From Frigoribacterium sp. Leaf263 (GTDB taxonomy: Bacteria; Actinomycetota; Actinomycetes; Actinomycetales; Microbacteriaceae), in assembly GCF_001422285.1 (NCBI RefSeq), contig NZ_LMMO01000005.1:67875-131874 (forward strand): 64,000 bases of DNA, written 5' to 3'. Below the pieces are notes generated by a model, which had not been told where the DNA came from, made no database searches, and saw only the letters and a list, made by a program, of their open reading frames with translations. Positions within the stretch are counted from its first letter, which is position 1. Each line of letters starts with the position of its first letter. Positions 20,261 to 63,490 of this stretch are shown one piece after another. The position numbers were made by a program, and so were the translations under genes.

Positions 20261-20874
20261 GCTGCTCGCGCCGCAGCGACGAAGGCCCGGATGAGGCCGA
20301 GGTCCTTGACGCCGCGCGACGACTCGACGCCCGAGCTGACGTCGACGCCGGCCGGCCCGAGCTCGGCGATCCGGGCGGCGACGGTGTCCGGGGTGAGGCC
20401 CCCGGCCAGGATCCACTCCCGGTGCGGTGGAGCGGCGAGCAGGGGCGCTGCGTCGAAGGCGGCGCCGGCACCGGGGGCGACCGCGTCGATCAGGAGGATG
20501 TCCTCGCGGAAGGCGCGCCGCGCCTCCTCGGTCTCGTCGGCGTAGGCGTCCACGCCGACGGCCCGGACCACCCGGAATCCCGCCGCGCGCACCGTCGCCA
20601 CGTCGGCAGCCGTCTCGTCGCCGTGCAGCTGCACGGTGCCGACGCCGGCGAGGGCGGCCAGTCGGAGGACCTCGTCGATCGGCTGCCCGCGGAAGACGCC
20701 CACCGTCTCGACGGACGTCGGCACGCGGCTCGCGAGGGTCCGGGCGGTCGGCGCATCGACGGTGCGCGGGCTGCCGGGGGCGAGGACGAAGCCCACCGCA
20801 TCGGCGCCCGCCTCGACGGAGGCGTCGACGGCCTCGGGGGTCGTGAGTCCGCAGATCTTCACCCAGGTGCGCAT
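20257..20874 (-). CDS. trpF: Phosphoribosylanthranilate isomerase
   Basis: 205 residues, the normal size for TrpF. Signature stretches are '[33 protein letters not shown]' (catalytic Cys9 in KICG), 'VQLHGDE', '[14 protein letters not shown]', '[15 protein letters not shown]' and '[16 protein letters not shown]'. It isomerises PRA to CdRP in tryptophan synthesis. It is not beside other trp genes, a common situation. ATG 20874 lies 7 nt after CAGACT, so it is probably leaderless. Its stop shares the palindrome CTAG with the clpB stop. Confidence 0.96.
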
Positions 20875-20881
20875 GACGACC

Positions 20882-20887
20882 AGTCTG
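20882..20887 (-). promoter_or_regulatory. Leaderless -10 (CAGACT) of trpF
   Basis: CAGACT on the minus strand is followed by 7 nt and ATG 20874. Confidence 0.35.
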
Positions 20888-20908
20888 CCGCGGCGGGCGC
20901 TGCGAGGT

Positions 20909-22312
20909 TCACGCGAGGAGGCGCGGTGCCGGACTCGCGGCCGGCTGGTCGTCGTGTACGCCCTCGCGGTAGTAACCCGAGCCGTAGCCGTCCGTCGTGC
21001 TCTTCGACCGGGTCATGGTCACGACGACGCCGAGGCACCGGACGTCGGCGATGTCGAACGCCCGGAGTGCGGCGGCGAGCTCGGCGCGCTTCGACTTCTT
21101 GGCGGCGGCGACCATCAGCACGCCGTTCGTGATGGCGCCCAGGAGCGTCGCGTCCGCGACCGGCAGGACGGGAGGCGCGTCGATCAGCACGTAGTCGAAG
21201 CGCGAGGCCAGCGATTCGACGAGCAGCTGCATCTGCGCCGATCCGAGCAGCTCGCTGGGGTTCGGGGGGACGCTGCCGGCGGGCAGGACGCTGAGCCCGT
21301 GCGTGCCCCACCGCTGCAGCACGTCATCGAGCTCGAACCGGCCGATCAGGACGTCGGTGAGACCGACCGCCCCCTCGAGCCCCATGAGGTCGGCCACGCG
21401 CGGGCGGCGCAGGTCGCCGTCGACGAGGGCCACGCGCGCTCCCGTCTCGGCCAGGACGACGGCGAGGTTGGTCACGGTCGTGGACTTCCCCTCCGACTGC
21501 TGAGCGGAGCTCACGACGAAGGCGCGCTTCGACGCGCCGTTGTCGAGGAACCGGAGGTTGGCGCGCAGGGTGCGGAAGGCCTCGGCTGCTCGACCGCGAT
21601 TGGCGTGCTGCACGATCAGAGGGTGATCCGCGGCGTCGCGGACGAACGGGACCGAGCCGACGACGGGCGGCGAGAACGACGACTCGATGTCGGAGGCCCC
21701 GTCGATGCGGGTGTCGAAGATCATGCGGGTGGCGGACGCCCCCAGGCCGAGGAGGAGGCCGAGGAGCCCGCCGATCACGGCGTTGGTCCGCAGTGACGGC
21801 GATGAGCGGGTGGCTGGGGTCTCGGCGGGCTCGGTGACGAGCAGGGTGACCGACGAGGCATCCGAGCCGGCGGGGCGCTCGATCTCGTCCTCGACGACCT
21901 CCTGGAAGCGCTCGCGGACGGCGTTCGCGATGTCACGTGCGCGCGTCGGATCGGGGTCCGTCGCGGTGATGTCGATCAGCACGCTCCGCGAGGGCGATGA
22001 GGCGGACACCTGGGTGGCGAGGGACCGGCGGGTCACCCCGAGACGCTCGGCGACCGGCTCGAGCACGGTCGACTTCGTCACGAGGTCGAGATACGACCGG
22101 ACGCGCTGCTCGGCGGCGTTGCCGCCCTGCAGGAGGTCGTTGGCGCTCTGCGTGACGGTCAGGTCCACCGAGACGTAGACCTGCGTGGACGACGTGTAGA
22201 GCGGCGGCTGGAGTGCGGCGAGGCCGACACCGGCGAAGGCGCCGAGCACGAGGGAGGCGACCAGGAGGAGCCAGTTCTTCTTCGCCACGTCGCCGATGGT
22301 GGATGAGTTCAC
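20909..22312 (-). CDS. Polysaccharide co-polymerase / BY-kinase (Wzz-Wze fusion) 1
   Basis: 467 residues. The Wzz-like part has two membrane helices (about 15-35 and 180-200) flanking an extracellular loop with 'PPLYTSSTQVYVSV'. The cytoplasmic tyrosine autokinase has Walker A 'SSAQQSEGKSTTVTNLA', Walker A' 'VALVDGDLRRPRVADLMG' and Walker B 'YVLIDAPPVLPVADA', and a C-terminal tyrosine cluster 'YGSGYYREG'. It controls chain length and export of a capsule or exopolysaccharide. I chose GTG 22312 because GGGAGA precedes it; an upstream GTG at 22336 has no ribosome site. It is divergent from the polymerase at 22438. A paralogue lies at 59699. Confidence 0.92.
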   Translation of the reverse strand: MNSSTIGDVAKKNWLLLVASLVLGAFAGVGLAALQPPLYTSSTQVYVSVDLTVTQSANDLLQGGNAAEQRVRSYLDLVTKSTVLEPVAERLGVTRRSLATQVSASSPSRSVLIDITATDPDPTRARDIANAVRERFQEVVEDEIERPAGSDASSVTLLVTEPAETPATRSSPSLRTNAVIGGLLGLLLGLGASATRMIFDTRIDGASDIESSFSPPVVGSVPFVRDAADHPLIVQHANRGRAAEAFRTLRANLRFLDNGASKRAFVVSSAQQSEGKSTTVTNLAVVLAETGARVALVDGDLRRPRVADLMGLEGAVGLTDVLIGRFELDDVLQRWGTHGLSVLPAGSVPPNPSELLGSAQMQLLVESLASRFDYVLIDAPPVLPVADATLLGAITNGVLMVAAAKKSKRAELAAALRAFDIADVRCLGVVVTMTRSKSTTDGYGSGYYREGVHDDQPAASPAPRLLA

Positions 22313-22338
22313 TGTTCTCCCTGAGCTAGCCGACACAT

Positions 22339-22346
22339 ATGTAGCA
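22339..22346 (-). promoter_or_regulatory. TGCTACAT extended -10 of kinase 1
   Basis: TGCTACAT on the minus strand, 27 nt before GTG 22312, in an AT-rich gap; related to the TGTAnTAT elements of other surface genes. Confidence 0.4.
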
Positions 22347-22425: not shown

Positions 22426-22437
22426 AGTATGTCTTTC

Positions 22438-26361: not shown

Positions 26362-27360
26362 ATGCGCATCCTCCTCGACGCCGCCATCTTCGGCTCGCCG
26401 CCCGAGTTCCGAGCTCGGAACCTGCAGGAGTCGGGCGAGTCGCTCCTCCTCGACGGCCTGATCGCCGCCGGGATCGACGCGACCCCCGTCGCGCCCGGTC
26501 TGCACAACAGCTGGCGGGGCTACGACGTGGTGCATCTGAACCACCTGACGCGATCGTGCGTGCGCCTGCTCGCGCCGACCCGGTCGCGGGTGGTCTTCAC
26601 GCGCCACAAGACCGAGGCCCCCGCCTCGCGGGCGCAGCAGCGCGTGCTGGCCGGCGCGTATCGCCACAGCGACGCCCTGGTCGTCATGAGCGAGACGGAA
26701 CGAGCGCTCGTGCTCGACCGGGTCGACGAGGCGGCCCCCGATCGCCTGCACGTCATCGCGAACGGCGTCGATCACACGCACTTCCCGTCGCGACTGCGCC
26801 GTCGACCCGATGCGGGGGAGCCGTGGCGGTTCGTCTCGGTCGGGCAGCTGATCGAGCTCAAGCGCGTCGACCTCACCATCCGCCTGATCGCGGACCTGCG
26901 CCGCGCCGGCGTCCCCGCCGTCCTCGACATCGTGTCGCAGCGCGAGACCCTCCGACCCGAGCTCGAGCGCTTCGCCGCCGAGCTCGGGATCGCCGACGCC
27001 GTCACCTTCGTCGGGCCGCAGACCCGGGCCGAGCTCGGGCGACGTCTGCTCGACGCGCACTTCCTGGTCGTGGCGTCGCGGACCGAGGCGCAGCCGACCG
27101 TCGTGACCGAGGCGGCGCTCTCGGGTCTGCCGGTCATCACCTTCGAGGTCGGCGGCGTGGTCGAGCAGCTGCCGGTCGCGCATCCCGTCCTCGACGTCTC
27201 GGACGTCCGGAGTCTGCTGCCGCTCACCCTCGCCCTCCTGCGGGACTACGACGGCGTCGCGGCGCAGTTCGCCGGCAACGTCGACTGGACCCGCGAGCGG
27301 TTCTCGATCGAGCGGATGGTCGCCGCCCACATCGAGCTGTACCGCGGCCTCGTCGGCTGA
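26362..27360 (+). CDS. Glycosyltransferase, GT4 type
   Basis: 332 residues, two Rossmann-like halves. The acceptor side has 'HNSWRGYDVVHLNHLTRSCVRLL' and 'VIANGVDHTHFPSRL'. The donor side has 'FVSVGQLIELKRVDLTIRLIADL' and the glycosyltransferase E-x7-E-like 'EAQPTVVTEAALSGLPVITFEVGGV'. Retaining GT4 enzyme, cytosolic face of the membrane, donor unknown. ATG 26362 follows an ACAGGAA ribosome site. It ends the first polysaccharide block, and a GC hairpin follows. Confidence 0.87.
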   Translation: MRILLDAAIFGSPPEFRARNLQESGESLLLDGLIAAGIDATPVAPGLHNSWRGYDVVHLNHLTRSCVRLLAPTRSRVVFTRHKTEAPASRAQQRVLAGAYRHSDALVVMSETERALVLDRVDEAAPDRLHVIANGVDHTHFPSRLRRRPDAGEPWRFVSVGQLIELKRVDLTIRLIADLRRAGVPAVLDIVSQRETLRPELERFAAELGIADAVTFVGPQTRAELGRRLLDAHFLVVASRTEAQPTVVTEAALSGLPVITFEVGGVVEQLPVAHPVLDVSDVRSLLPLTLALLRDYDGVAAQFAGNVDWTRERFSIERMVAAHIELYRGLVG

Positions 27361-27374
27361 CGCGAGCCGAGACC

Positions 27375-27411
27375 GAGGAGGCGCGCCCCGGGTCTCGGAG
27401 CGCGCCTCCCT
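27375..27411. terminator. Bidirectional hairpin between GT4 and ABC permease
   Basis: GGAGGCGCGC (27377-27386) pairs with GCGCGCCTCC (27400-27409) around a 13-nt loop, lying between two convergent genes. It contains the dispersed GAGGAGGCGCG motif at 27375-27385. Confidence 0.65.
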
Positions 27412-27415
27412 GGAT

Positions 27416-28615
27416 TCATGTCGCCAGCGCCTCGGTCGGGGCCATCCTCGCCGCACGTCCCGCCGGATGGATGCCGCTCACCCCGCCGATCACGACCGTG
27501 GCCAGGAGTCCACCCGCCGCGGCCCAGGAGGGGATGACGACCGGCCAGCCCTGCGTGGCGGCGAACACCGCGGTGACCGAGCATCCGAGCGCGACGCCCA
27601 CCGCGCCCCCGGCCAGCGAGAGCAGGAGCGACTCGACCAGGAACTGCCGTCGGATGTCGCGTCGGCGTGCGCCCAGGGCGCGGCGGACCCCGACCTCGCC
27701 ACGGCGTTCGAGCACGGTGATCACCATCGTGTTCGCGACGCCGATCCCGCCGACCAGCAGCGCGACGCCGCCGACGCCGAGCAGCAGCGCGGTGATCGAG
27801 CTCTCGGTGGCCTGCTGGGCGGCCAGGGCGTCCGAGGGTCGGCTGACCTGCACCCGGCGGGGGTCGACCGGGTCGAGGGTCGCGGCCAGCAGATCGCGCG
27901 CCTCGACGACGCGGGTCGGATCGGCCCGGGCGTAGAGCCGGGTCGGGCGCCCCGCGAAGCCGAAGGCGGCGTCCGCGCCCGAGGCGGGCACGAGGGCCGA
28001 CGAGTCGAGCTCCGGCGCGAGCGGCAGAGGCGCGAGCACCCCCGCCACGGCGACCCAGCGGCCGCCGATCCAGACGCGGGTGTCGGCGTCGACCGCGCCG
28101 ATGCCGAGCGTCGCCGCGGCCGTCGACCCGAGCACGACCTGGGGCAGGTCGTCGGCCGCGAACCACCCGCCCGAGACCGTCTCGCCCTGCAGCACCTCGA
28201 GCAGATCGCCCTGCACCGCGTCGAGCGTGATGCCGCCCGACGCCGCCTCGGGCACGAGGTCGGTGCGATAGACGTTCCGCCCGGTCACCCGCCCGACGCC
28301 GGCGGCCTGCTCCACGTCGTCCCGCCGCTCGAGCAGGGCGACGCCGTCGGCGGGGAGGGTCGCCGTCTCGCCGGCGGCGTCCTCGCCCGGGACGGCCTGC
28401 AGGAGGTTCGTGCCGAGATCGTCGAGCACGCGGGCCAGGGCGGCCTGACTCGACGACGAGATGCCGACCACGGCGATCATGGCGGCGATGCCGATCGCGA
28501 TGCCGAGGGCGGACAGCAGCACTCGGGTCGGACGGGTGCGGAGGCCGAAGACGCCCAGGCGCACGAGGTCCGTGCTCGAGACGCCCCGCCGTCTCGCCTC
28601 GCGTCGCGCCCTCAT
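27416..28615 (-). CDS. MacB-like ABC transporter permease
   Basis: 399 residues. N-terminal helix in 'RPTRVLLSALGIAIGIAAMIAVVGISSSSQAAL', a MacB periplasmic-core-like domain (about 50-255), and three C-terminal FtsX helices ('ALLLGVGGVALLVGGIGVANTMVITVLERRGEVGVRRALGARRRDIRRQFLVESLLLSLAGG'). This fits MacB/FtsX-type mechanotransmission exporters. ATG 28615 overlaps the ATPase stop by 4 nt. With the ATPase and membrane-fusion protein upstream it forms a tripartite-like exporter adapted to a Gram-positive envelope. Substrate unknown; antimicrobial peptide or lipoprotein export are possible. Confidence 0.92.
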   Translation of the reverse strand: MRARREARRRGVSSTDLVRLGVFGLRTRPTRVLLSALGIAIGIAAMIAVVGISSSSQAALARVLDDLGTNLLQAVPGEDAAGETATLPADGVALLERRDDVEQAAGVGRVTGRNVYRTDLVPEAASGGITLDAVQGDLLEVLQGETVSGGWFAADDLPQVVLGSTAAATLGIGAVDADTRVWIGGRWVAVAGVLAPLPLAPELDSSALVPASGADAAFGFAGRPTRLYARADPTRVVEARDLLAATLDPVDPRRVQVSRPSDALAAQQATESSITALLLGVGGVALLVGGIGVANTMVITVLERRGEVGVRRALGARRRDIRRQFLVESLLLSLAGGAVGVALGCSVTAVFAATQGWPVVIPSWAAAGGLLATVVIGGVSGIHPAGRAARMAPTEALAT

Positions 28616-29367
28616 CCGATCCCGCCCGACGAGTCGTCGACGATGACGCCGTCGCGCAGGCGCACCCGGCGCGGCAGGCGGTCCGCGAGATCGAGGTCGT
28701 GCGTGATGACGACGACGGTGGTCCCCGAGGCGTTGAGCTCGCGGAGCAGCTCGACGACGTCCGCCCCCGACCGGCTGTCGAGCGCCCCCGTCGGCTCGTC
28801 GGCGAGCAGGAGCGTCGGTTCTCCGACCACCGCGCGGGCGATGGCCACCCGCTGGCGCTCGCCGCCCGAGAGCTCGTGGGGGCGGTGGTCGAGGCGGTGC
28901 CCGAGCCCCACCCGGGTCAGCGCGCGCTGGGCGCGCTCCAGGCGCTCGGGTCGCCGGACGCCCGAGTAGAGCAGCCCGTCGGCCACGTTCTCGGTGGCCG
29001 TCGCGCCGCTCGCGAGGTGGAAGTGCTGGAACACGAACCCGATGTGCTCGGACCGCAGCCGCGACAGGGCGTCGTCGTCCGACGACCCGACCTCGTGCCC
29101 GGCGACGCGCACCGAGCCCGTGCTCGGGCGGTCGAGCGTCCCCATGAGGTTCAGCATCGTCGATTTGCCCGATCCGCTCGGACCGACGACGGCCACGAGC
29201 TCGCCCGCGTGGACGGTCAGATCGACTCCGCCGAGAGCGACGACGTCGCCGTGGACCTTGGTGACGCCGCGCATCTCGAGCACGCCGCCCGAGGCCACCG
29301 CCGGGGTGGGGACCGAGGAGGCGCGGGTCGCCTCGTCGGCGCCCGTCCGCATCGTCGAGCCCCTCAC
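28612..29367 (-). CDS. ABC transporter ATPase (LolD/MacB class)
   Basis: 251 residues. Walker A GPSGSGKST at 62-70, Q loop 'HIGFVFQHFHL', signature LSGGERQRVAIARA and Walker B 'LLLADEPTGALD' are all present, so it should be active. GTG 29367 overlaps the previous stop (GTGA); ATG 29352 is a possible internal start. It powers the MacB-like permease encoded next. Confidence 0.95.
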   Translation of the reverse strand: MRGSTMRTGADEATRASSVPTPAVASGGVLEMRGVTKVHGDVVALGGVDLTVHAGELVAVVGPSGSGKSTMLNLMGTLDRPSTGSVRVAGHEVGSSDDDALSRLRSEHIGFVFQHFHLASGATATENVADGLLYSGVRRPERLERAQRALTRVGLGHRLDHRPHELSGGERQRVAIARAVVGEPTLLLADEPTGALDSRSGADVVELLRELNASGTTVVVITHDLDLADRLPRRVRLRDGVIVDDSSGGIG

Positions 29368-30485
29368 GACGGCACCACGACGTCGTCGCCCGCCGCCAGG
29401 TCGCCGGTGGTCACCTCGACGCGCCCCTGCGCGACGAAGCCGATCTCGACGCCGACCGGCTCGACGCTCCCGTCGTCGCGCACCCGCTCGACGACGTAGC
29501 CCCCGCCCTGGGCGAGGAGGGCTGGGACGGGCACGGAGAGGACGTCCTCGCGGGTCTCCCCCTCGACGACGAGGTCGACGGATCGGCCGCCGGTCGTGCC
29601 GTCCGGCGGGGCGTCGCCGAGGCCCACGACGACGGGGACGCGCTCGTCCCCCGCCCCGGTGCCCGCTCCGGTCCCGTCGTCGGTCCCGTCGTCGCCGCCC
29701 GAGGCGCCGACCGACCGGACCGTCCCGGCGAGGGTCTCTCCGCCCGGGGTCAGCACGTCGACCGGCGTGCCGACGGCGAAGCGGGGCAGGTCGGCCTGGG
29801 CGACGGAGCCGGTGGCCACCGGGGTGGTCGACGTGTAGCGGTAGACGACCTCTCCGGCGGCGTCGCCCGTGCGGCCCACGACCTCGTCGACCCGGATGTC
29901 GCCCGGCACGAACGCGACGTCGTCGGCGTCCAGCACCCCGGTGCGGTCCAGGTCGCGGTCGGCCTGCCAGCGGCGCACGGCCTCGGCCGTCCGCCAGTCG
30001 AAGCGGTCGTCGTCGGCGACGTCGTAGCCGAGGGCTCGCAGCGAGTCCTTGAGCTGGTCGACGTCGGCTCCCGCGATCCCCGCCTGGAGGGATCGCCAGA
30101 GGGGGACCCTCCCGTGGAGCGCCCGGACGGGTCGCTCGTCGACGCTGTACAGGATGCCGTCGAGAGCGACGACCTCGCCGTAGCCGGGCAGCCCCGTGAC
30201 CGTCCCCTCGCCGGCCGACGCCAGCGGCGTCCGGGCGCCATACCCCAGCGTCCCGGGCACCTTCACGCTCTCGACCAGATCACCCTCGATCACGGGCGTC
30301 GTCACGGGCGGTGACGTCCCGGCCCCGGCGACGGCGTCCGACGAGTCGGGATCACCGGCGAGGACCGCGCAGCCGCTCACCACGAGACCGCACAGGCCCA
30401 CGGCGACGAGGGCCGCGATCCGGTCCGCGCCGCGTCGAGCACCGGAGCGTCGCCGGTCGGGGGATCCCGTCGCCCGCTCCGTCAC
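29364..30485 (-). CDS. Membrane-fusion lipoprotein with peptidoglycan-binding domain
   Basis: 373 residues from GTG 30485, which overlaps the preceding stop. The signal peptide has lipobox VSGC with Cys39. Then come an HlyD-like hairpin base ('GDLVESVKVPGTLGYG'), a peptidoglycan-binding type 1 domain ('SLQAGIAGADVDQLKDSLRALGYDVADDDRFDWRTAEAVRRWQADRDLDRTG', about residues 125-180), and MFP beta domains ending 'VEPVGVEIGFVAQGRVEVTTGDLAAGDDVVVPS'. The Gly/Thr/Asp linker near 265-280 is low complexity. It connects the MacB-like exporter with the cell wall. Such PG-binding MFPs are common in actinobacteria beside MacB permeases (general knowledge). Confidence 0.9.
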   Translation of the reverse strand: MTERATGSPDRRRSGARRGADRIAALVAVGLCGLVVSGCAVLAGDPDSSDAVAGAGTSPPVTTPVIEGDLVESVKVPGTLGYGARTPLASAGEGTVTGLPGYGEVVALDGILYSVDERPVRALHGRVPLWRSLQAGIAGADVDQLKDSLRALGYDVADDDRFDWRTAEAVRRWQADRDLDRTGVLDADDVAFVPGDIRVDEVVGRTGDAAGEVVYRYTSTTPVATGSVAQADLPRFAVGTPVDVLTPGGETLAGTVRSVGASGGDDGTDDGTGAGTGAGDERVPVVVGLGDAPPDGTTGGRSVDLVVEGETREDVLSVPVPALLAQGGGYVVERVRDDGSVEPVGVEIGFVAQGRVEVTTGDLAAGDDVVVPS

Positions 30486-31048
30486 TCGCTCCGCCCCTGG
30501 CTGTTCGGCCCGACCTCGTCCGAGCAGGCGAAGAACGCCTCGGTTCGGGGGTCCCGGGCGCTCGGGTCGGTGCTGCCCGACGCGACCTCCCGGGGGAACG
30601 AGCCGTCGACCGGGTCGGGGAAGTCGTCGAAACCCTTCTCGCGGACGCACTCGGCGACGGCCAGGTTGGCCTCCTGCTGCTCGGCCAGGTCGGCCGCCGA
30701 CGGCTGATCGACCCCGCCGCCCTGTTCGGCGGGGAGCTGCTCGCGACAGGCCGAGAGCGCGTCGGAGTAGGCCTCGACGTCGACGCCCGCCGGGGGCGCG
30801 ACGACCCCCTCCGTGGCCAGCAGGGCGTCGTCGACGTCGTACCCGGCGTCGCGGAGGCATCCGCCGAGCAGGGCCGCCGTGCTGCCCGACGCGGACGTCG
30901 GCGTGCTCGGGCCCGGGGTCGGCGAGGCGTCCGGCGCGCAGGCGGCGAGCGCCGGGACGAGCAGCGCGGCCGCGATCAGGAGTCGGGTCGCCGAGGAGGC
31001 GCGGTGCCGGGAGGCGCGTCGGCGCGGGGTGCTGAGGGGGAGGGTCAT
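30482..31048 (-). CDS. Small lipoprotein of the exporter operon
   Basis: 188 residues from ATG 31048 (AAAGGA upstream). A lipobox LAAC has Cys37. The mature part contains two short Cys units, 'GGCLRDAGYDVDD...LSACREQLP' and 'VAECVREKGFDDFPDP', and a third Cys near the end ('FFACSDEVG'). The 'C-x-R-x-x-G' / 'FPDP' pattern recurs in lipoproteins found beside PG-binding fusion proteins in actinobacteria (recollection). It is first in the four-gene exporter operon and overlaps the next gene (GTGA). A role in sensing or delivering the substrate is inferred. Confidence 0.8.
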   Translation of the reverse strand: MTLPLSTPRRRASRHRASSATRLLIAAALLVPALAACAPDASPTPGPSTPTSASGSTAALLGGCLRDAGYDVDDALLATEGVVAPPAGVDVEAYSDALSACREQLPAEQGGGVDQPSAADLAEQQEANLAVAECVREKGFDDFPDPVDGSFPREVASGSTDPSARDPRTEAFFACSDEVGPNSQGRSE

Positions 31049-31193: not shown

Positions 31194-31850
31194 ATGAGGG
31201 TCCTGGTGGTGGACGACGAGCGGGCGCTCGCGGATCTGATCGCGGCGGGCCTCACCCGGCAGGCGATGGCGGTCGACGTGGCCTACCGGGGTGACGACGC
31301 CGACGAGCTGCTGGCGGTGAACGACTACGACGTCGTCGTGCTCGACCGCGATCTGCCGGGGATGCACGGCGACGCCGTGGTCCGCGCCCTGACGGCACGG
31401 GGGGATCCCACGCGCATCCTGCTGCTGACCGCCGCCGGCGACCTCGCCGATCGCGTGGGCGGTCTCGAGCTCGGCGCCGACGACTACCTCGCCAAGCCGT
31501 TCGAGTACTCCGAGCTGGTGGCCCGGGTGCGGGCGCTGGGTCGGCGCGCGGCGCCGGCCGTCCCGCCGGTGCTCCGCCACGGCGACCTCGCGCTCGACGC
31601 GAACCGGCACCTCGCCGTCCGCGCGGGGCTCGATCTCGGGCTCTCGACGAAGGAGCTCCTCGTGCTCGAGACCCTGATGCGCGCCGACGGGCGTCTCGTC
31701 AGCGCGGAGGAGCTGCTCGAGAAGTGCTGGGACGCGAACGTCGACCCCTTCACGAACGCGGTCCGCGTGACGGTCAGCAAGCTGCGGCGGAAGCTCGGCG
31801 ACCCCGACCCGATCCGCACGGTGTCCGGGCGCGGGTACCAGCTGTGCTGA
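31194..31850 (+). CDS. OmpR-family response regulator
   Basis: 218 residues. Receiver domain with the acidic pair DD (7-8), phospho-acceptor Asp51 in 'VVVLDRDLPGMHGD' and Lys in 'LAKPFEYSELV'. The winged-helix DNA-binding domain ends 'RVTVSKLRRKLGDPDPIRTVSGRGYQLC'. ATG 31194 follows GGGAGGCGGGAG. It is divergent from the exporter operon across 145 bp and overlaps the kinase gene, so it most likely controls that exporter. Confidence 0.95.
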   Translation: MRVLVVDDERALADLIAAGLTRQAMAVDVAYRGDDADELLAVNDYDVVVLDRDLPGMHGDAVVRALTARGDPTRILLLTAAGDLADRVGGLELGADDYLAKPFEYSELVARVRALGRRAAPAVPPVLRHGDLALDANRHLAVRAGLDLGLSTKELLVLETLMRADGRLVSAEELLEKCWDANVDPFTNAVRVTVSKLRRKLGDPDPIRTVSGRGYQLC

Positions 31851-50974: not shown

Positions 50975-52919
50975 GATGCCCGAGGAGGTGCGTGGCGGCT
51001 CGATCCCAGACGGCGCGGTGGTCGAAGCGCTCGGCCACCGACTCCGCCGCGGCCGCCGCCAGGGAGGCCGCGAGGCGGCGATCGGTCAGGACGGCACGGA
51101 GCGCGCCGGCGAGCGCCACGTCGTCATGTCGGGGCACGACGAGTCCGGTCACGCCGTGTCGGACGACCTCGGCGAGGGCCGGCGCGTCGCTGACGACGAC
51201 GGGCACCCGGGCGCAGCTCGCCTCGAGCACGACCGAGCCGAGGCCCTCGCGGTGGGAGGGCAGGCAGAGCACGTCGAACGCGGCCAGCACCTCGGACGCG
51301 TGGTCGACGGGGCCGTGCACGACGAACCCGTCCCCGTCGAGGAGCCGGAGGGTCTCGGGCGGGAGGTCGGCCAGGCCCTCGTCGGGGCCCACGATCACGA
51401 GGTGCGCGGGGAGGCCCTCCCGTCGGAGTCGGGCGACGGCGGACGTCAGCTCGACGAGGCCCTTCGCGGCGCAGGCCCGGCCGACGAAGCCGACGACGAG
51501 GGCGTCCTCGTCGATGGCGTGCGCCGCGCGGACCGCGCGACGCCGCCCGTGGTCCCGGCCGGCCGCCGCGAACCCCTCGACGTCGACACCGCCCACCGAG
51601 CCGTCGCCGAGCACCGTCGTCGTGGCTGTCGGGATGCCGAGCTCGCCGCAGGTGTCGACCAGCGATGCGCTGACGGCGACCGTCTCGGTCGACGAGGCGG
51701 CCACGATGCGCTCGGCGGCGAGGCTGATGCGGCGCGGCAGACCCGTCTGGGTCTCGAGCCGCAGGCCGTGCAGCACGTGGACCCGGCGGGGGACCCGCGC
51801 GACGGCCGCCGCCAGCGCGGTGACCAGTGACGCCTTGGGCGTGCCGTAGACGACGACGGCCGGCCGCAGACGCAGCAGGAGCCGGGTGGTCGCGACGAGC
51901 GCGCGCACGTCGTCGACCGGCGACGGGTCGCGGACGAGCGGGAGCGCGTGCGCCCGCACGCCCTCCCGGCGACCGACCGCGGCCAGGCGACCCGTGTCGC
52001 CCGACGCGATCGCCAGCGGGGCGACGCCGCGGCCGAGCCAGTGCCGCACCTGACCCGCGTAGAGCACGTCGAGGCTCACGTCGGCGGTCGTGACGAGCAG
52101 CACGCCGCGGCGTGACCGCCGCGTGATCGGCGACGGGAGGTAGCGAGGGCGCCGGAGCCCCAGGTGCCGCGTGATCTGGGCGGCGCTCCACACCGCGTCG
52201 CGGGCCCGCTGGGCGGAGGGCGGCGAACCGAGCGCTGCCGCGAGTCGGCGGCGCCCGGCGAGGACGCTGCGGCTCGCCGCGCCCCAGGGCGGCGTCCGGC
52301 GGCTGTGCTGCCCGTCGTGCACGCGGTACGAGGTCAGGGCCTCGGGCACGTTGTCGATCGGACCGACGGTCGCGAGGCGCAGCCAGAGGTCGTAGTCCTG
52401 CATCCGGGTGCAGCGGAGGTCGTAGCCGCCCACCAGGTCGAAGGCGGAGCGGCGGTAGGTCGTCGCCGAGTGGGTGAGGACGTTCCGGGTCAGCAGTGCG
52501 CGTCGCAGATCGCGGCCCGAGAGGGCGGCGAGATGGCGGAGGGGCGTCCCCTCGGCGTCGACGACCGTCACCGACGATCCGAGCGCCACGAGGTCGGGAC
52601 GCGAGGCGAAGACCTCCATCTGCCGGGCGAGGCGTTCGGGTTCGGCCCGGTCGTCGGCGTCGAGGCGGGCGACGAACTCCCCCCGCGACGCGGCGATCCC
52701 GGCGTTCAGCGCGAACGGCGTGCCGCTGCGGCGGGGGAGACGGACCACGAGGAGGCGCGGGTCGGCCGGCAGGGCGTCCTCGTCTCCCGTGGCCCCGTCG
52801 AGCACGACGACGACCTCGAGGGGCGACCACGTCTGCCCGAGGGCCGACGAGACGGCCTCGAGCAGGTAGTCGTCGACGGCGATCGCCGGGATGACGACGG
52901 ACACGAGGGGCGAGGGCAT
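50925..52919 (-). CDS. Two-domain glycosyltransferase (GT2-GT4 fusion)
   Basis: 664 residues from ATG 52919 behind AGGAGACC (a TTG at 52940 lacks a ribosome site). Residues 1-230 are GT2: 'PLVSVVIPAIAVDDYLLEAVSSALGQTWSPLEVVVVLDG', the DxD-like 'VARLDADDRAEPERL', and 'RMQDYDLWLRLATVG'. From about 260 to 650 it is GT4: 'VGFVGRACAAKGLVELTSAVARL', 'LCLPSHREGLGSVVLEASCARVPVVVSDAPALAEVV'. Two transferases in one chain suggest two consecutive sugars are added. It belongs to the second polysaccharide block but is transcribed opposite to it. Its 3' end overlaps trmH by 50 nt. Confidence 0.9.
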   Translation of the reverse strand: MPSPLVSVVIPAIAVDDYLLEAVSSALGQTWSPLEVVVVLDGATGDEDALPADPRLLVVRLPRRSGTPFALNAGIAASRGEFVARLDADDRAEPERLARQMEVFASRPDLVALGSSVTVVDAEGTPLRHLAALSGRDLRRALLTRNVLTHSATTYRRSAFDLVGGYDLRCTRMQDYDLWLRLATVGPIDNVPEALTSYRVHDGQHSRRTPPWGAASRSVLAGRRRLAAALGSPPSAQRARDAVWSAAQITRHLGLRRPRYLPSPITRRSRRGVLLVTTADVSLDVLYAGQVRHWLGRGVAPLAIASGDTGRLAAVGRREGVRAHALPLVRDPSPVDDVRALVATTRLLLRLRPAVVVYGTPKASLVTALAAAVARVPRRVHVLHGLRLETQTGLPRRISLAAERIVAASSTETVAVSASLVDTCGELGIPTATTTVLGDGSVGGVDVEGFAAAGRDHGRRRAVRAAHAIDEDALVVGFVGRACAAKGLVELTSAVARLRREGLPAHLVIVGPDEGLADLPPETLRLLDGDGFVVHGPVDHASEVLAAFDVLCLPSHREGLGSVVLEASCARVPVVVSDAPALAEVVRHGVTGLVVPRHDDVALAGALRAVLTDRRLAASLAAAAAESVAERFDHRAVWDRAATHLLGHLSSAGARTGADAPTRA

Positions 52920-54785: not shown

Positions 54786-55859
54786 GTGAAGGTCCTCTAC
54801 TACGGCGTCCACGACGACGCCTACCCGCGGAACTCCCGCATCCGCGGCCACCTGGCCGAGCGCTACGGGGCCCGAGTCGTCGTCGCCGCCCGCAGCCGTC
54901 GTCGGGGGCGCCTCGTCCGGGCCCTCGACGACGCACGGGGACTCTGGCGCGGCTCCCGCGACGTCGACGTGATCGTGGTCTCCGAGATGCGGTCGAGCCA
55001 CGCGCCTTGGGCCTGGCTCGCGTCCCGGCTCCGCGGGGCCCTGCTGGTCGTCGACTGCTTCATCGGCCTGCACGAGACGGCCGTGCTCGACTGGGGGTCC
55101 GTCCGACCGGGGTCGCTGCGGGCGCTGCGGCTCCGACTGCTCGATCGGCTCGCCGTCCGCCTCGCCGACGTGGCCCTCAGCGACACCGAGCCCCGAGCGG
55201 AGTCGCTCCGCCGTCTCGGGGGCTCGACCCCGGTCGTCGTCCTCCCGGTCGGTGCGCCGGCCTGGGCGCGCGACCTGCCCCCGACGGATCCGGGCGGCAC
55301 CCTCCGGGTCCTCTACTACGGCAACTACATCCCCCTCCACGGCACCGAGACGGTCATCGAGGCCCTCGAGATGACCGTGCCGCACCGGTCCGTCGAGTTG
55401 ACGCTCATCGGGGGAGGACCGCGTCGGGACGGCATCCGCCGACTGGTCGACCGCTCCGGGTTGAGCGCCTCCTGCCGGTTCGTCGATCCTGTTCCCGAGA
55501 GCGATCTCCGAGCGGCCATCGCCGAGAGCGACGTCGTGCTGGGGGTCTTCGGCGACTCGGCCAAGGCGCGATCGGTCGTGGCCAACAAGGTCTGGCAGGG
55601 TCTCGCCTGCGGTCGGACGGTCATCACCCAGCGCAGCACCGCCCTCGACGAGCTGCAGGTCGTGGCCGGGGCGCGACTCGTGCAGACCGAACCGGGCGAC
55701 GCCTCGTCGGTGGCCGCGGCCCTCGTCGCATTCGGGCGGAGCGATCATCGCCCGACCGCTCGCACCCCGGGCCCGGTCGCACCGGCTCTCGAGGCCCTCG
55801 TGGCCCGGGGGTACGCGAGCCTCGACGCGCACCTCGGCGCGGCGGGCGACCGACGGTGA
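54786..55859 (+). CDS. Glycosyltransferase (GT4-like)
   Basis: 357 residues from GTG 54786, 10 nt after the dehydrogenase. 'MKVLYYGVHDDAYPRNSRIRGHLAERYGARVVV' is the acceptor domain; 'LRVLYYGNYIPLHGTETVIEALEMTVPHRSVELTLIGGGPRRDGIRRLVDRSGL' and 'ESDVVLGVFGDSAKARSVVANKVWQGLACGRTVITQRSTALDEL' form the donor domain, with a replaced E-x7-E motif. It may be a divergent member. Stop overlaps the flippase GTG. Confidence 0.85.
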   Translation: MKVLYYGVHDDAYPRNSRIRGHLAERYGARVVVAARSRRRGRLVRALDDARGLWRGSRDVDVIVVSEMRSSHAPWAWLASRLRGALLVVDCFIGLHETAVLDWGSVRPGSLRALRLRLLDRLAVRLADVALSDTEPRAESLRRLGGSTPVVVLPVGAPAWARDLPPTDPGGTLRVLYYGNYIPLHGTETVIEALEMTVPHRSVELTLIGGGPRRDGIRRLVDRSGLSASCRFVDPVPESDLRAAIAESDVVLGVFGDSAKARSVVANKVWQGLACGRTVITQRSTALDELQVVAGARLVQTEPGDASSVAAALVAFGRSDHRPTARTPGPVAPALEALVARGYASLDAHLGAAGDRR

Positions 55860-57088
55860 CGCGCCTCCTCGGCCAGGTCACGACCCTGCTGCTCTACGGC
55901 GCCTCGCCTCTCGTCGCCGCCCTCGCCCCGTTCGCCGTCGTGCCCGCCGTCACGAGCCGCTACGGCGCCGACGGCTGGGCGGCCTGCGCCGTGGCGCTCT
56001 CGGTCGGGGCGGGTGCCGCGGTCGTCGCCGAGCTCGGGTGGGTGGTCGTCGGCCCGCAACGCGTGGCGCGGGACCCGGCCTGCTGCGCCGAGGTGCATCA
56101 CGACGCCCTCGCCTCGCGTCTCGTCGCCCTGGTCGTCGTCGCTCCGATCGCCGCCGTCGCGGTGGCGCTTCTCGTCGACGAGCACCGCGCGGCGGCGGTG
56201 CTGCTGACCCTCGGCATCGCCGCGGGTGCCCTGAGCCCCACGTGGCTCTCCGTCGGCCTCGGGAGACCGGGTCTCACCCTGCTCTGCGAGGCCGTGCCCC
56301 GGGTCGTCCTCGCCCTGGCGGCGGCGGCCGTCATCGCGGTCGGCGGCCCGCTCGAGGCGTACGGCCTCGCGTCGCTGACGGCGGCGGCCGTGACCCTGGT
56401 CGCCGCCGGTCGGGCCGTGGGCGTCCGGATCACCCCCACCGGCGAACGCCTCCTCGCCGTGCCGTCCATCGTGCGGGGGCAGCTCGTCGTCACGACGGGC
56501 CGCGCCGTCACGGCCTTGTACAAGACGCTGCCCGCCGCCCTGCTGCAGAGCGTGGCGCCGGGCTCCGTCGCGGCCTTCGGCGCGATCGACCGTCTGGCCC
56601 GAGCCGGGCTCGGCGTCGTCGCGATCGTCCCCCAGCGGCTGCAGGTGTGGGTCGGCACCCCCGACGCGGACCTGGCCGTGCGCCGCACCGTCGCGTCGCT
56701 CGCCGTGAACGCCGCCCTGGCCCTGGCCTCGGCCGTCGCCGTGCTGGTCGCCCTGCCGCCCGCCGTCGAGGTGCTCTTCACCGGCGTCGTCGAGGTCGAG
56801 CAGGGCGCCGTCGCCGTGGCCGCCCTGCTCGTCGCCCTGACGTGCCTGTCCCGGGCGTTCGGCCTCGCGCTCGTCACGCTCGGGGTCGTCCGCGTCACGA
56901 CCGTCGCCGCCATCGCGGCCGCGGCGATCGGGGTGACGGGCGTGCTGTGGGGCGGCGCGGCCGGCGGTGCGACCGGGGCCCTCCTCGGCGTCGCGGCCGC
57001 CGAGGCCGTCGCCGTGGGGGTCCAGGCCGCGGTGGTGGTGCCCCTCCTCGTCGGCTCGCGCCGCGCCTCCCCGGGGTCCCCGACGTGA
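55856..57088 (+). CDS. Flippase-like membrane protein (Wzx type) 2
   Basis: 410 residues, about 12 helices. 'LLYGASPLVAALAPFAVVPAVTSRYGADGWAACAVALSVGAGAAVVAELGWVVVGPQRVAR' resembles polysaccharide flippases; 'TALYKTLPAALLQSVAPGSVAAFGAIDRLARAG' matches the second-half start. GTG 55856 overlaps the previous stop, and its own stop overlaps the polymerase. The sequence is unlike flippase 1, so it is not a simple recent copy. Confidence 0.82.
   Translation: MTRLLGQVTTLLLYGASPLVAALAPFAVVPAVTSRYGADGWAACAVALSVGAGAAVVAELGWVVVGPQRVARDPACCAEVHHDALASRLVALVVVAPIAAVAVALLVDEHRAAAVLLTLGIAAGALSPTWLSVGLGRPGLTLLCEAVPRVVLALAAAAVIAVGGPLEAYGLASLTAAAVTLVAAGRAVGVRITPTGERLLAVPSIVRGQLVVTTGRAVTALYKTLPAALLQSVAPGSVAAFGAIDRLARAGLGVVAIVPQRLQVWVGTPDADLAVRRTVASLAVNAALALASAVAVLVALPPAVEVLFTGVVEVEQGAVAVAALLVALTCLSRAFGLALVTLGVVRVTTVAAIAAAAIGVTGVLWGGAAGGATGALLGVAAAEAVAVGVQAAVVVPLLVGSRRASPGSPT

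Positions 57089-58376: not shown

Positions 58377-58380
<4 letters not shown>
57085..58380 (+). CDS. O-antigen polymerase/ligase-like membrane protein 2
   Basis: 431 residues, about eleven helices. The main outside loop (about 150-190: 'ATGDPVPWGRRHRDVNDYVLVNTLLPGGLERVQGTLGHPITYG') and 'LLSGSRSVVLAAILAVAVLVVA' with 'FGSGVGTVERLYDEGLFPQDGFWVLDNQLVTTLATQGVLGV' are typical of the Wzy_C/O-antigen ligase family. GTG 57085 and its stop both overlap neighbours. It likely polymerises the repeat unit of the second block. Confidence 0.85.
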
Positions 58381-59573
<1,193 letters not shown>

Positions 59574-61093: not shown

Positions 61094-62172
61094 CGGCTGG
61101 CCGTCCGTTCGAGGGGAGCGAGGTGCGGTGCCAGCACGGCGAGCCGGTGCAGCGCCGCGTCGAGGGACCGGTCGATGGTCAGCTCGGAGGCGGTGGAGTG
61201 GACGTGGTCGGAGACGAGGCGTCGCAGGTCGGGATCGCGGCGGAGGTCGCGGACGGCGGTGTCCCAGGCCCCGTGATCGTCCAGGGGGAGGACGAAGCGC
61301 CGGCGGAGCCCCGGATCGGTGTACAGGGCGGGTGCCGCGCCCGTTCCCTCGCTCAGGAGCACGGGCACGCCGGCCGAGGCGGCCTCGACGGGACTGCGTC
61401 CGAAGGCGTCGCGGAAGGACGTCGTCACGGCCACGCCGGCGTCGCCCCAGAGCCGGTCCGCGGGGAGCCAGCCGGCCCATTCGAGTCCGTCGGGTCGGCG
61501 GGCGCGCAGCTCGTCGTCGAGCGGACCGGTGCCGTGGAGGCGCGCCGGGCCCCCGACGCGGCGCACGAGGTCGAGGAACTCGCCCGGCCCCTTCTCGACC
61601 GAGAGCCGCCCGGCCCAGACGAGCGGCCCCTCCTGCTCACCGGTCGAGGTGCGGGGCAGGCCGGGCACCCCGGCCTGCACGATCGCGGGTTCGCGGACCC
61701 TCGACACCTGGTCGGCGAGTGACGGCGATGTGGCCCAGACGTCGTCGAGGCGGCGGAGCGCCCGCGACTCGAGGGTCGTGAGGAGCAGGCGGCGGGCACG
61801 GGCCTGCTCGCCGGCGGCCGGCCAGGGCAGGCCGCGCACCCAGGCGATCCGCGGTCCGTGGCGAAGAGTCCGCGACGCGGCGACCACCATGTCGCTCTGG
61901 GGAACGAGAGAGATGACGACGTCGGCGCGGCGGACGTCGGGGTCCGCGTGGACGATGCGGTGCACGTCGCGGAGGACGTCCACGCCGTGCCGGGAGATCG
62001 ACGTCTCGGTCACGCCGGGGGAGTGCGTCACCGCACCGGGCGCCTCGGGCCGGACCCCGATCAGCGCAGTCCAGGGCAGGCCCCGCGCGCGTGCTGCGCC
62101 GACGAGGTCGTGGGCCGAGCGGTAGACGCCGCTCCGGGCCATGAGCGGGGCTGCGACGAGGGCGACCCTCAT
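61090..62172 (-). CDS. Glycosyltransferase, GT4 type
   Basis: 360 residues. 'GVYRSAHDLVGAARARGLPWTALIGVRPE' forms the acceptor side; 'LVWAGRLSVEKGPGEFLDLVRRVGGPARLHGTGP' and 'TTSFRDAFGRSPVEAASAGVPVLLSEGTGAAP' the GT4 donor site. ATG 62172 and its stop both overlap neighbours by 4 nt (ATGA), so three genes on this strand form one operon ending with kinase 2. Confidence 0.86.
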   Translation of the reverse strand: MRVALVAAPLMARSGVYRSAHDLVGAARARGLPWTALIGVRPEAPGAVTHSPGVTETSISRHGVDVLRDVHRIVHADPDVRRADVVISLVPQSDMVVAASRTLRHGPRIAWVRGLPWPAAGEQARARRLLLTTLESRALRRLDDVWATSPSLADQVSRVREPAIVQAGVPGLPRTSTGEQEGPLVWAGRLSVEKGPGEFLDLVRRVGGPARLHGTGPLDDELRARRPDGLEWAGWLPADRLWGDAGVAVTTSFRDAFGRSPVEAASAGVPVLLSEGTGAAPALYTDPGLRRRFVLPLDDHGAWDTAVRDLRRDPDLRRLVSDHVHSTASELTIDRSLDAALHRLAVLAPHLAPLERTASR

Positions 62173-63371
62173 CGAGCGGCCTCGGCGACCGGCGACGGCG
62201 ACCCCGCCGCCGCGGCCAGGATCGTCTCGGCCTTGGGGCGCCAGGTCGCGTCGTGCGGGATGACGCTCGGTCGACGGGCGACCCGTGGTCCGGAGCGTCG
62301 CCACCCGCCGAGTCGGGCGGCGTGGCCGTCGAGGGGCAGGACGGTCACGCCGTCGAGCCCCCGGCTGTCGCATCCGTCGACGGGGGTGGTCAGCACGGGC
62401 AGCCCCGCCGCCCGGTACTCGTACGTCTTGATGATGTCGCCCCCGACCTCGCCGCCCGGGGAGCCTCCCGAGCTGCCGACCCGGTGCGGCACCCACCCGA
62501 CGTCGAAGCTCCGCAGGAGGGCCGGGACGTCGTCGTAGTGCACGTCGCCGAGCAGGGTGACGTTCGGCATCGAGGCCAGCGGCCGGCGGTAGCCGCGGTC
62601 GAGCACCGGGCCGGCGAAGACGAACCCGACCTCGGGCTCCGCCTCGATGCAGTCGATGATGCCGTCGAGGTCGAGCCGGCGCCCGATCTTGCCGACGTAC
62701 CCGACGGTGAGCGGCCCGGAGGCCGCGCTGGTGTCGTCGAACCGCTCGGGATCGCAGCCGTTCGGCAGCAGCACGACGTCGTCGCGGCCGAACCGCCGGG
62801 CGAGGGCGACCGTGCCCTCGCCGTTGGCCGTCACGTGACACGCGCTGGCGAAGGCGGCCGAGTAGGCGCGCTCGACATCGGCGCGGATGCCGGCGAAGGC
62901 ATGGTGCACGCTCCAGTCGTCGAGCAGATCCAGCACGGTCGTCCGCCCGGTCACGAAGGGATTCGAGCGCGGCAGCGCCAGCGCCGTGAAGGGGTTCCAG
63001 ACGACCGCGGGCACGTCGCGCCAGTCGTCGGGCAGCCCCGGGTACGCGTCCGCCGAACGCGTCCACCACCGGCGCCGGTCGCGCGGGTCGGGCAGACGCC
63101 AGGTCGTCGTCTCGACGGGGTGCGTGCCGGCGGCGACGCCCCCTCCGTCGCCTCGAGGGCCCCCGACGCGGCGGAGGGCACCCGCGGCGCGGAGTACGAC
63201 CGGCTCGGGTCGCGACACGACGGCGACGCCGCCCCGGCCGCCCGTGAGGCGCCCCAGCCATTCGACGAGATGCGCGTCGCGCGTGCGATAGCCCTCGGTG
63301 GTGAACTTCCCCTGGCCGTGCATCGGGTAGGCCAGGACGGCGGGCGGAGGTTTCGCGGGGATCGTGTGCAT
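62169..63371 (-). CDS. Glycosyltransferase, GT4 type
   Basis: 400 residues from ATG 63371. 'PAVLAYPMHGQGKFTTEGYRTRDAHLVEWLGRL' leads; 'VTANGEGTVALARRFGRDDVVLLPNGCDPERF' and 'LTVGYVGKIGRRLDLDGIIDCIEAEPEVGFVFAGPVL' are the classic hinge and donor motifs, followed by 'DVGWVPHR' and 'DIIKTYEYRAAGLPVLTTPVDGCDSRGL'. ATG 63371 lies 6 nt after AAAACT (leaderless); ATG 63395 would overlap the promoter. First gene of the minus-strand operon. Confidence 0.85.
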   Translation of the reverse strand: MHTIPAKPPPAVLAYPMHGQGKFTTEGYRTRDAHLVEWLGRLTGGRGGVAVVSRPEPVVLRAAGALRRVGGPRGDGGGVAAGTHPVETTTWRLPDPRDRRRWWTRSADAYPGLPDDWRDVPAVVWNPFTALALPRSNPFVTGRTTVLDLLDDWSVHHAFAGIRADVERAYSAAFASACHVTANGEGTVALARRFGRDDVVLLPNGCDPERFDDTSAASGPLTVGYVGKIGRRLDLDGIIDCIEAEPEVGFVFAGPVLDRGYRRPLASMPNVTLLGDVHYDDVPALLRSFDVGWVPHRVGSSGGSPGGEVGGDIIKTYEYRAAGLPVLTTPVDGCDSRGLDGVTVLPLDGHAARLGGWRRSGPRVARRPSVIPHDATWRPKAETILAAAAGSPSPVAEAAR

Positions 63372-63377
63372 CACGAC

Positions 63378-63407
63378 AGTTTTGTTCACCGACATGTGGA
63401 ACGTCAA
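63378..63407 (-). promoter_or_regulatory. Promoter of GT4 operon (TTGACG-N18-AAAACT)
   Basis: On the minus strand TTGACG (63402-63407) and AAAACT (63378-63383) with an 18-nt spacer and 6 nt to ATG 63371. Confidence 0.5.
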
Positions 63408-63423
63408 GACGACATGCCACAGC

Positions 63424-63462
63424 AGGAGGCGCGGGTCGGCTGATGCTCGACCCGCGCCTCCT
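63424..63462 (-). terminator. Strong terminator of the YhgE/Pip-like gene
   Basis: A perfect 15-bp stem (AGGAGGCGCGGGTCG with CGACCCGCGCCTCCT) and a 9-nt loop, 29 nt past the stop at 63491. It is built from two inverted copies of the dispersed motif core. Confidence 0.8.
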
Positions 63463-63490
63463 CGGTTCCGGCCCCGGCGGGGCCCCGGCG

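What the first reader, a model, noticed from the sequence alone, without database searches (positions are those of the whole stretch)
20519..63463. GAGGAGGCGCG: a dispersed 11-bp motif in genes and terminators
Seen: 15 exact copies in 64 kb, eight in one orientation and seven in the other, with a frequent longer form CCGAGGAGGCGCGGGTCG. From base composition at about 71% GC I estimate well under one copy by chance. Some pairs form hairpins (63424-63462, 27375-27411, 47007-47048), others sit at gene ends and in linkers of unrelated proteins. Known parallel: DNA uptake sequences in Haemophilus and Neisseria are dispersed, present as terminator pairs and within genes, with no strand bias. That pattern argues against polar motifs such as KOPS or Chi. 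An uptake-like, nucleoid-protein or methylation role is inference.
Basis: partly seen in the sequence, partly recalled or inferred. Interest (0 to 1): 0.7.

Follow-up and report, generated by a model that had tools for sequence, protein, structure and literature searches.

The report
Uptake-type DNA word in Frigoribacterium
A short DNA word is scattered hundreds of times through every examined genome of the bacterium Frigoribacterium, while related genera carry a different word; the pattern is that of a "self" tag for taking up DNA, which would be unusual for Gram-positive bacteria.

Summary
The window has 16 exact GAGGAGGCGCG, 8 per strand (shuffles 0.46). The genome (Frigoribacterium, 3.24 Mb) has 809, 404/405; the reversed word 12. 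All 16 genomes of the genus have 315-879, the 133 other relatives 0-116. It is the core of a roughly 22-bp asymmetric motif with one profile in genes and between genes. In 864 kb read, 124 copies lie in genes (60 sense, 64 antisense, six frames) against about 19 under synonymous shuffling; no polarity. Close neighbours are mostly inverted. Congeners show shifted versions. Of 74 other family genomes, 25 carry another word, CGGATGCCGCG, at 100 or more copies; Frigoribacterium has it at background. comEA, comEC and a Tad/Flp-type locus are present. Best reading: an uptake-type sequence spread by biased transformation. Uptake is untested, no receptor is known, depletion in non-conserved DNA was not seen, and one genome rich in the family word lacks a TadBC match.

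The parts
20519..20529 (-). core copy, sense frame 0 in gene 20257-20874(-)
   Evidence: 23.4 bits
20915..20925 (+). core copy, antisense in gene 20909-22312(-), at its 3' end
   Evidence: 18.7 bits
27375..27385 (+). core copy between convergent genes 26362-27360(+) and 27416-28615(-); first arm of hairpin
   Evidence: 20.0 bits
27400..27410 (-). near-match second arm of that hairpin
   Evidence: fold of 27361-27415
29315..29325 (+). core copy, antisense in gene 28612-29352(-)
   Evidence: 26.3 bits
30993..31003 (+). core copy, antisense in gene 30482-31048(-)
   Evidence: 20.9 bits
32657..32667 (-). core copy, antisense in gene 31844-33049(+)
   Evidence: 19.5 bits
32919..32929 (+). core copy, sense frame 1 in gene 31844-33049(+)
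   Evidence: 19.2 bits
40325..40335 (-). core copy, sense in gene 39955-41058(-); intact in 10 of 14 congeners aligned there
   Evidence: 19.4 bits
41032..41042 (+). core copy, antisense in gene 39955-41058(-)
   Evidence: 21.5 bits
43088..43098 (-). core copy, antisense in gene 42904-43824(+)
   Evidence: 13.1 bits
47007..47017 (+). core copy, sense frame 2 in gene 45352-47253(+); first arm of inverted pair
   Evidence: 18.2 bits
47038..47048 (-). core copy, antisense in gene 45352-47253(+); second arm of inverted pair
   Evidence: 21.1 bits
48251..48261 (-). core copy, antisense in gene 48239-49276(+)
   Evidence: 27.2 bits
52749..52759 (+). core copy, antisense in gene 50925-52919(-)
   Evidence: 23.0 bits
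55860..55870 (-). core copy, antisense at the start of gene 55856-57088(+)
   Evidence: 13.3 bits
63423..63433 (+). variant core CAGGAGGCGCG, first arm of intergenic hairpin
   Evidence: 21.6 bits
63453..63463 (-). core copy, second arm of intergenic hairpin between 62169-63395(-) and 63491-63991(-)
   Evidence: 26.2 bits

Best explanation
The word is the core of a roughly 22-bp uptake-type sequence (about GCC[GC]AGGAGGCGCGGNKCGNSY). Frigoribacterium is inferred to take up DNA by natural transformation through a Tad/Flp pilus with ComEA and ComEC, and some surface component of that machine is inferred to prefer DNA carrying the motif. DNA of the same lineage carries it, is taken up more often and recombines into the chromosome, so copies arise and are repaired wherever coding or regulatory constraint allows (molecular drive). 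When the receptor's taste changes the genome follows, giving species dialects in the genus and a different word in related genera. Shown here: abundance, genus specificity, codon independence, lack of polarity, one profile in genes and out, dialects, presence of the machinery. Inferred: sequence-biased uptake, the receptor, and the drive.
For: 809 copies, 404/405 by strand, reversed word 12; 16 of 16 genomes of the genus with 315-879 copies against 0-116 in the other 133 relatives; AGGAGGCGCGGNKC 629 in the own genome against at most 13 in any of 395 other phylum genomes, none of them of this genus. Genic copies 124 against about 19 under synonymous shuffling, 60 sense and 64 antisense. Same extended profile in genic and intergenic copies, with flank preferences at -2, -1, +11, +13, +14 and +17. 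Single-base variants of the core number 0-28 each, except C at position 0 with 99, against 212 exact copies. Cores kept at 31 of 41 aligned sites in G002 and 17 of 27 in G014, composition-matched words 27% and 17%. Dialects: G003 relaxed at position 1, G007 at positions 9-10 (Fisher 1e-5 for position 1 and 2e-8 for position 10); G003 and G006 have 842 and 881 copies of SGGAGGCGCGG against 247-494 in the other 14. A different word, CGGATGCCGCG, in 25 of 74 other family genomes at 100-786 copies and at background in all 16 Frigoribacterium genomes; in 120 kb of G023 45 genic copies of its 9-base core against 7.5 under synonymous shuffling, strands 24/27. Machinery: T2SSE, double T2SSF, DUF4244 and Tad-like proteins in one locus, an SLBB/helix-hairpin-helix ComEA-type protein and a ComEC. 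Two Microbacteriaceae are reported naturally transformable (PMC11577799, passages); M. luteus needs ComEA, ComEC and tad-1 (PMC8467076, passages).
Against: No uptake experiment in this genus was found. Density is not lower in own DNA that fails to align to relatives (0.47-0.69 per kb against 0.21-0.30 aligned), though only 3-7 sites in 4-13 kb of unaligned DNA per comparison. In G003 and G007 own cores are kept no more than control words (5 of 27, 5 of 18); dialects explain this, but so would turnover for other reasons. ComEC and the TadBC protein are near-universal (142 of 149; 144 of 149), so the machinery does not separate motif-rich from motif-poor genomes. G080 has 148 copies of the family word but no TadBC match (a 90-contig assembly, 97% complete). 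In G023 the family word is not enriched between genes (6 of 51) and 22 of 51 copies are in one sense frame. No receptor candidate was identified.
Confidence: 0.62

Rival explanations
1. A binding site for a chromosome-organising or other DNA-binding protein (nucleoid protein, condensin loader, segregation factor) that needs many dispersed sites and whose specificity has shifted between lineages.
For: Long asymmetric motif with an almost invariant inner core, spread over the chromosome with random-like spacing, enrichment between genes.
Against: Hundreds of sites would have to be replaced by selection alone when specificity changed between genera, and many sit inside coding sequence. I recall no nucleoid site that is non-palindromic, about 22 bp long and at 250 copies per Mb.
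Confidence: 0.15
2. A recombination or repair signal like Chi, or a polar segregation signal like KOPS.
For: Abundance and genus specificity; Chi words also differ between taxa (recalled).
Against: Orientation is roughly balanced in each 100-kb bin of an 800-kb stretch, 99 against 97 in all; inverted pairs are in excess; the motif is about 22 bp with graded flanks rather than a short exact word.
Confidence: 0.07
3. A methylation or restriction-related site, possibly coupled to uptake.
For: Almost invariant inner core; methylation-dependent DNA discrimination exists in Campylobacter (recalled).
Against: Restriction and methylation do not by themselves raise site numbers, and about 22 bp with graded flank preference is unlike a methylase site. 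Methylation could not be tested here.
Confidence: 0.08
4. Transcription terminators or RNA elements.
For: Close inverted pairs can form hairpins; sites are denser between genes (0.84-1.72 per kb against 0.242 in genes) and densest between convergent genes.
Against: 124 of 212 exact copies are inside genes in both senses and all frames, with the same profile, and only 25 neighbour pairs among 311 sites are within 70 bp.
Confidence: 0.04
5. Codon or composition bias, or a mobile repeat family.
For: The word can read Glu-Glu-Ala-Arg, and that frame (sense 0) is the commonest, 34 of 124; copies are commoner in high-GC genes.
Against: Synonymous shuffle gives 12.5 sense and 6.8 antisense against 60 and 64; reversed word 12 against 809; no strong sharing beyond about 22 bp.
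Confidence: 0.02

Closest known systems
DNA uptake sequence (DUS) of Neisseriaceae and its dialects
   Same: Short asymmetric word in very high number, in genes and between genes, inverted pairs at terminators, lineage-specific dialects around a constant inner core that follow phylogeny (PMC3630211, passages).
   Different: Lower density here (about 250 exact 11-mers per Mb; the passages give 2245 to 5918 per genome for several dialects); the host is an actinobacterium with a Tad/Flp-type locus and no known ComP; uptake not tested.
Uptake signal sequence (USS) of Pasteurellaceae
   Same: Core word plus weaker flanking positions, dispersed in both orientations (USS anatomy recalled); two USS dialects and a predicted minor-pilin receptor ComN (PMC12616744, passages).
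   Different: Different sequence and phylum, G+C-rich flanks, receptor unknown.
Natural transformation machinery of Micrococcus luteus (ComEA, ComEC, tad-1)
   Same: Corresponding parts are present in this genome, including a short Flp-type pilin resembling the M. luteus N-terminus by eye.
   Different: No uptake sequence is described for M. luteus in the passages and listings seen.
HIP1 of cyanobacteria
   Same: Dispersed, hugely over-represented word in genes (recalled).
   Different: HIP1 is a palindrome (recalled); this motif is asymmetric and about 22 bp long.

Membership tests
DNA uptake sequence (DUS/USS) | Short word in far greater number than composition and codon usage predict | tested here: met
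DNA uptake sequence (DUS/USS) | Both orientations, no polarity along the chromosome | tested here: met
   404/405; per 100 kb in 800 kb of one contig; the rest of the genome not binned
DNA uptake sequence (DUS/USS) | In genes and between genes with one consensus; permissive regions favoured | tested here: met
DNA uptake sequence (DUS/USS) | Inverted pairs able to act as terminators | tested here: met
   25 neighbours within 70 bp, 18 inverted, 7.8 close pairs of any orientation expected; hairpins (one of three not better than shuffles). Termination itself not tested
DNA uptake sequence (DUS/USS) | Dialects around a conserved inner core, following phylogeny | tested here: met
   profile read only for own, G002, G003, G007, G014; for G001, G011 and G012 the dialect is inferred from low counts
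DNA uptake sequence (DUS/USS) | Host has transformation machinery | tested here: met
   but near-universal among relatives
DNA uptake sequence (DUS/USS) | Depleted in foreign or accessory DNA | tested here: inconclusive
   unaligned DNA has the higher density (0.47-0.69 against 0.21-0.30 per kb), on 4-13 kb per comparison
DNA uptake sequence (DUS/USS) | Presence of the word raises uptake or transformation | not testable with these tools
   needs an experiment
DNA uptake sequence (DUS/USS) | Sequence-specific receptor (ComP in Neisseria) | not tested
   no candidate singled out among the pilin-like proteins and ComEA
Chi / KOPS | Polar with respect to replication (recalled) | tested here: not met
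REP/MITE-type repeat | Extended shared sequence, mostly extragenic (recalled) | tested here: not met

The most novel reading that the evidence does not exclude
A family of Gram-positive bacteria, the Microbacteriaceae, marks its chromosomes with self-recognition words for DNA uptake. A CGGATGCCG-type word is used in many genera, and Frigoribacterium switched to AGGAGGCGCGG, rewriting hundreds of sites, with further dialects among its species; the words are read by the Tad/Flp-ComEA machine. This would take uptake sequences outside Neisseriaceae and Pasteurellaceae and give a natural series of receptor switches.
Probability: 0.55. Interest if true: 0.9.

Novelty: new variant of a known kind. 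Interest (0 to 1): 0.78.

Why it matters
Uptake sequences are established in two Gram-negative families (recalled; also the start of the abstract of PMC7811141 in the listing). If the motif works this way, self-preferring DNA uptake arose separately in a Gram-positive phylum with a different pilus, and the dialects offer a way to find the receptor by co-variation. It could also make Frigoribacterium and other Microbacteriaceae easier to transform by adding a short tag, and would bear on how sequence bias shapes recombination barriers between species.

Tried and rejected
Codon usage was rejected with a within-gene synonymous shuffle. Polarity was rejected. A terminator-only role was rejected because of genic copies. 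A mobile repeat was rejected because only about 22 bp is shared. A link between machinery presence and motif was not informative, since ComEC and TadBC are nearly everywhere, and G080 lacks a TadBC match while rich in the family word. Depletion in non-conserved DNA was looked for and not found. A search for tyrosine recombinases gave only two hits in the genome, both outside the stretches read, so no prophage test was made. De novo words in G069 (120 kb) were weak and in G049 (120 kb) moderate; in G019 (60 kb) weak; in G074 (40 kb) the list was led by a local repeat, and CGGATGCCG had 8 copies, all genic, against 1.65 under synonymous shuffling. The alignment of the pyrE neighbourhood of 15 congeners mixed non-orthologous pieces and was used only for the site at 40325. 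The first tree is invalid because some loci were in the wrong orientation; one search replaces it. A pilin comparison by pattern had the same orientation fault and gave nothing usable. Literature: no paper holds any of four 9- to 11-letter strings of the two motifs and their complements as whole words; combinations of uptake sequence with Actinobacteria, Microbacteriaceae or Micrococcus luteus, of Frigoribacterium with natural competence, and of Clavibacter with repeat terms gave nothing describing such a motif in what I saw of them, listings or passages. The library is limited, so prior description cannot be excluded.
Full report
What is there. GAGGAGGCGCG occurs 16 times in the window, eight on each strand, all between 20519 and 63463; shuffles that keep dinucleotides give 0.46. 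In the genome in which the window lies (3,243,570 bases, 10 contigs) it occurs 404 times forward and 405 times reverse; the same word read backwards occurs 12 times.

Which organism. The best named hits of the window's pyrE protein are two Frigoribacterium strains (91-92% identity). Two genomes placed in the window's genus have contigs of exactly the same length as those strains' contigs (572303 and 286102 bases), so the genus is taken to be Frigoribacterium, family Microbacteriaceae. The species was not determined.

Distribution. Among 149 genomes (own included) the 16 of the genus have 315 to 879 copies with reversed-word controls of at most 19. The 133 others have 0 to 116; the highest is G069, 116 with control 33. 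In 396 genomes of the phylum (own included, no other of the genus) the pattern AGGAGGCGCGGNKC is found 629 times in the own genome and at most 13 times in any other.

Anatomy. I read 864 kb of the own genome (800 kb of contig C1 plus the window) with a home-made gene finder. Of 212 exact copies 124 are in predicted genes and 88 between genes. Copies in and out of genes share one profile, about G C C [G/C] A G G A G G C G C G G N [T/G] C G N [G/C] [T/C]. Single-base variants of the core number 0 to 28 each except C at position 0, with 99. After iteration 575 sites reach 12 bits in the 864 kb, 535 of them in the 800-kb stretch, against 32 and 77 in third- and fifth-order simulations of that stretch.

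Nulls. Shuffling synonymous codons within genes gives 12.5 sense and 6.8 antisense copies (200 shuffles, maxima 21 and 14) against 60 and 64; all six frames are used. Orientation is roughly balanced in each 100-kb bin of C1, 99 against 97 in all. Spacing has mean 4043 and standard deviation 4069, as for random placement, except for close pairs: of the S-AGGAGGCGCG core (311 sites) 25 neighbours lie within 70 bp, 18 of them inverted, against 7.8 of any orientation expected. Density is 1.72 per kb between convergent genes, 1.44 tandem, 0.84 divergent, 0.242 in genes. The pair at 63415-63472 folds far better than its shuffles, the one at 27361-27415 modestly, the one at 46998-47058 not.

Evolution inside the genus. 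Around recA, own cores are kept at 31 of 41 aligned sites in G002 (87.6% identity) and 17 of 27 in G014 (82.6%), against 27% and 17% of composition-matched words; in G007 and G003 only 5 of 18 and 5 of 27, no better than such words (18% and 17%). Those two use shifted versions. G003 is relaxed at position 1 (18 copies with A, 21 with C or G; own 212 and 51), and its leading 11-mer is CCCGCGCCTCC, 40 against 0.95 expected. G007 is relaxed at position 10 (50 with G, 46 with another base; own 212 and 45) and at position 9 (profiles, Fisher tests). SGGAGGCGCGG occurs 842 and 881 times in G003 and G006 (controls 103 and 87) and 247 to 494 times in the other 14. On a tree of pyrE plus tadBC (tadBC partial for three genomes) G001, G007, G011 and G012, all low in both words, form one supported group (100/99), while G003 and G006 are long branches of unresolved order. 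Only G007 of the four was read for its profile.

Other genera. De novo counts in 120 kb of G023 and 40 kb of G016 showed a different dispersed word, CGGATGCCG (51 against 6.5 and 18 against 1.5). CGGATGCCGCG reaches 100 or more copies in 25 of the 74 other genomes of the family, up to 786 (G074), with controls of 1 to 16 in those 25. The 16 Frigoribacterium genomes have 7 to 17, with controls of 11 to 24. The 59 genomes outside the family have at most 39 (control 26). In G023 the 9-base core has 45 genic copies against 7.5 under synonymous shuffling, strands 24 and 27; but it is not enriched between genes (6 of 51) and 22 of 51 copies are in one sense frame. Among 80 named loci of up to 20.6 kb (the best 80 of 546), 32 have six or more copies of CGGATGCCG, among them loci of Microbacterium, Agromyces, Leifsonia, Cryobacterium, Mycetocola and Salinibacterium; none of the six Curtobacterium and two Clavibacter loci do. 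GGATGCCGCG and GGAGG-CGCG could be one motif changed by a substitution and a deletion; this is an alignment by eye only.

Machinery. The genome has a pilus-type locus before a topA-like gene (C3:160623-163866): a T2SSE ATPase (E 9e-41), a protein with two T2SSF stretches (1.5e-15), a DUF4244 protein that looks like an Flp pilin (2.9e-20), a small protein without a Pfam match, and one just under the Tad cut-off (3e-4). Behind a leuS-like gene lie an SLBB/helix-hairpin-helix protein of ComEA type and a ComEC (C3:586452-589663). The names topA, leuS, Flp and TadE-like are by eye. A review describes such parts for M. luteus, whose Flp pili are needed for transformation (PMC6370729, passages); PMC8467076 (passages) says the same of ComEA, ComEC and tad-1. 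PMC11577799 (passages) reports natural transformation in two Microbacteriaceae, Rhodoluna lacicola and Aurantimicrobium photophilum. The route is plausible, but the parts are also present in nearly all relatives (ComEC in 142 of 149; TadBC in 144 of 149). One genome, G080, has 148 copies of the family word and no TadBC match, which is against the Tad step unless the 90-contig assembly lost the gene.

Interpretation. A word that is spread in both orientations, ignores reading frames, keeps the same profile in genes and out, forms inverted pairs, has dialects with a nearly constant inner core, and is exchanged for another word between genera is what biased DNA uptake is held to produce in Neisseriaceae (PMC3630211, passages). 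A protein-binding site could produce abundance, but replacement of hundreds of sites between genera is hard to reach without a copying bias. That it works like an uptake sequence is therefore the best reading; membership is not established, because uptake and receptor are untested and depletion in non-conserved DNA was not seen.

Limits. About a quarter of the own genome was read base by base; gene calls are approximate; counts in other genomes rest on exact words. The reversed-word control keeps base composition but not dinucleotides.

Noticed in passing
L194-L199 (G023 C1:1-120000): A second dispersed repeat with GGTTGAGGAG (30 copies, 2 in genes) and GGTTTCGAGAC words, looks like a REP-type element.
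   Followed up: partly
L246-L248 (G019), L206-L211 (G049): Enriched words CAGGATCCG in G019 (12 against 1.3) and CGGATCCGC (61 against 15.5) and CATCGGCTTCG (8 against 0.14) in G049; possibly further dialects of a GGAT(G)CCG word.
   Followed up: no
L171-L180, L142, L151-L155 (G007): Enriched words ACGGGAACCCG, GGCGGGTTCCC and CCCTGGTAGCC, 12-17 copies in 320 kb, unlike the main motif.
   Followed up: no
L244-L245 (G074 C1:100001-140000): Overlapping words AGCCGTGAGCC and GTGAGCCGTGA, 10 and 9 copies, suggest a local tandem array.
   Followed up: no
window 58377-58430: Predicted gene 58377-59573 starts MIRQQQQQQQQQQP; a CAG repeat at a gene start, possibly length-variable.
   Followed up: no
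window 1-20518: No exact copy of the core in the first 20.5 kb although eight motif-model hits are present; the stretch holds dnaK- and clpB-like genes and large, probably secreted proteins (named by eye).
   Followed up: partly
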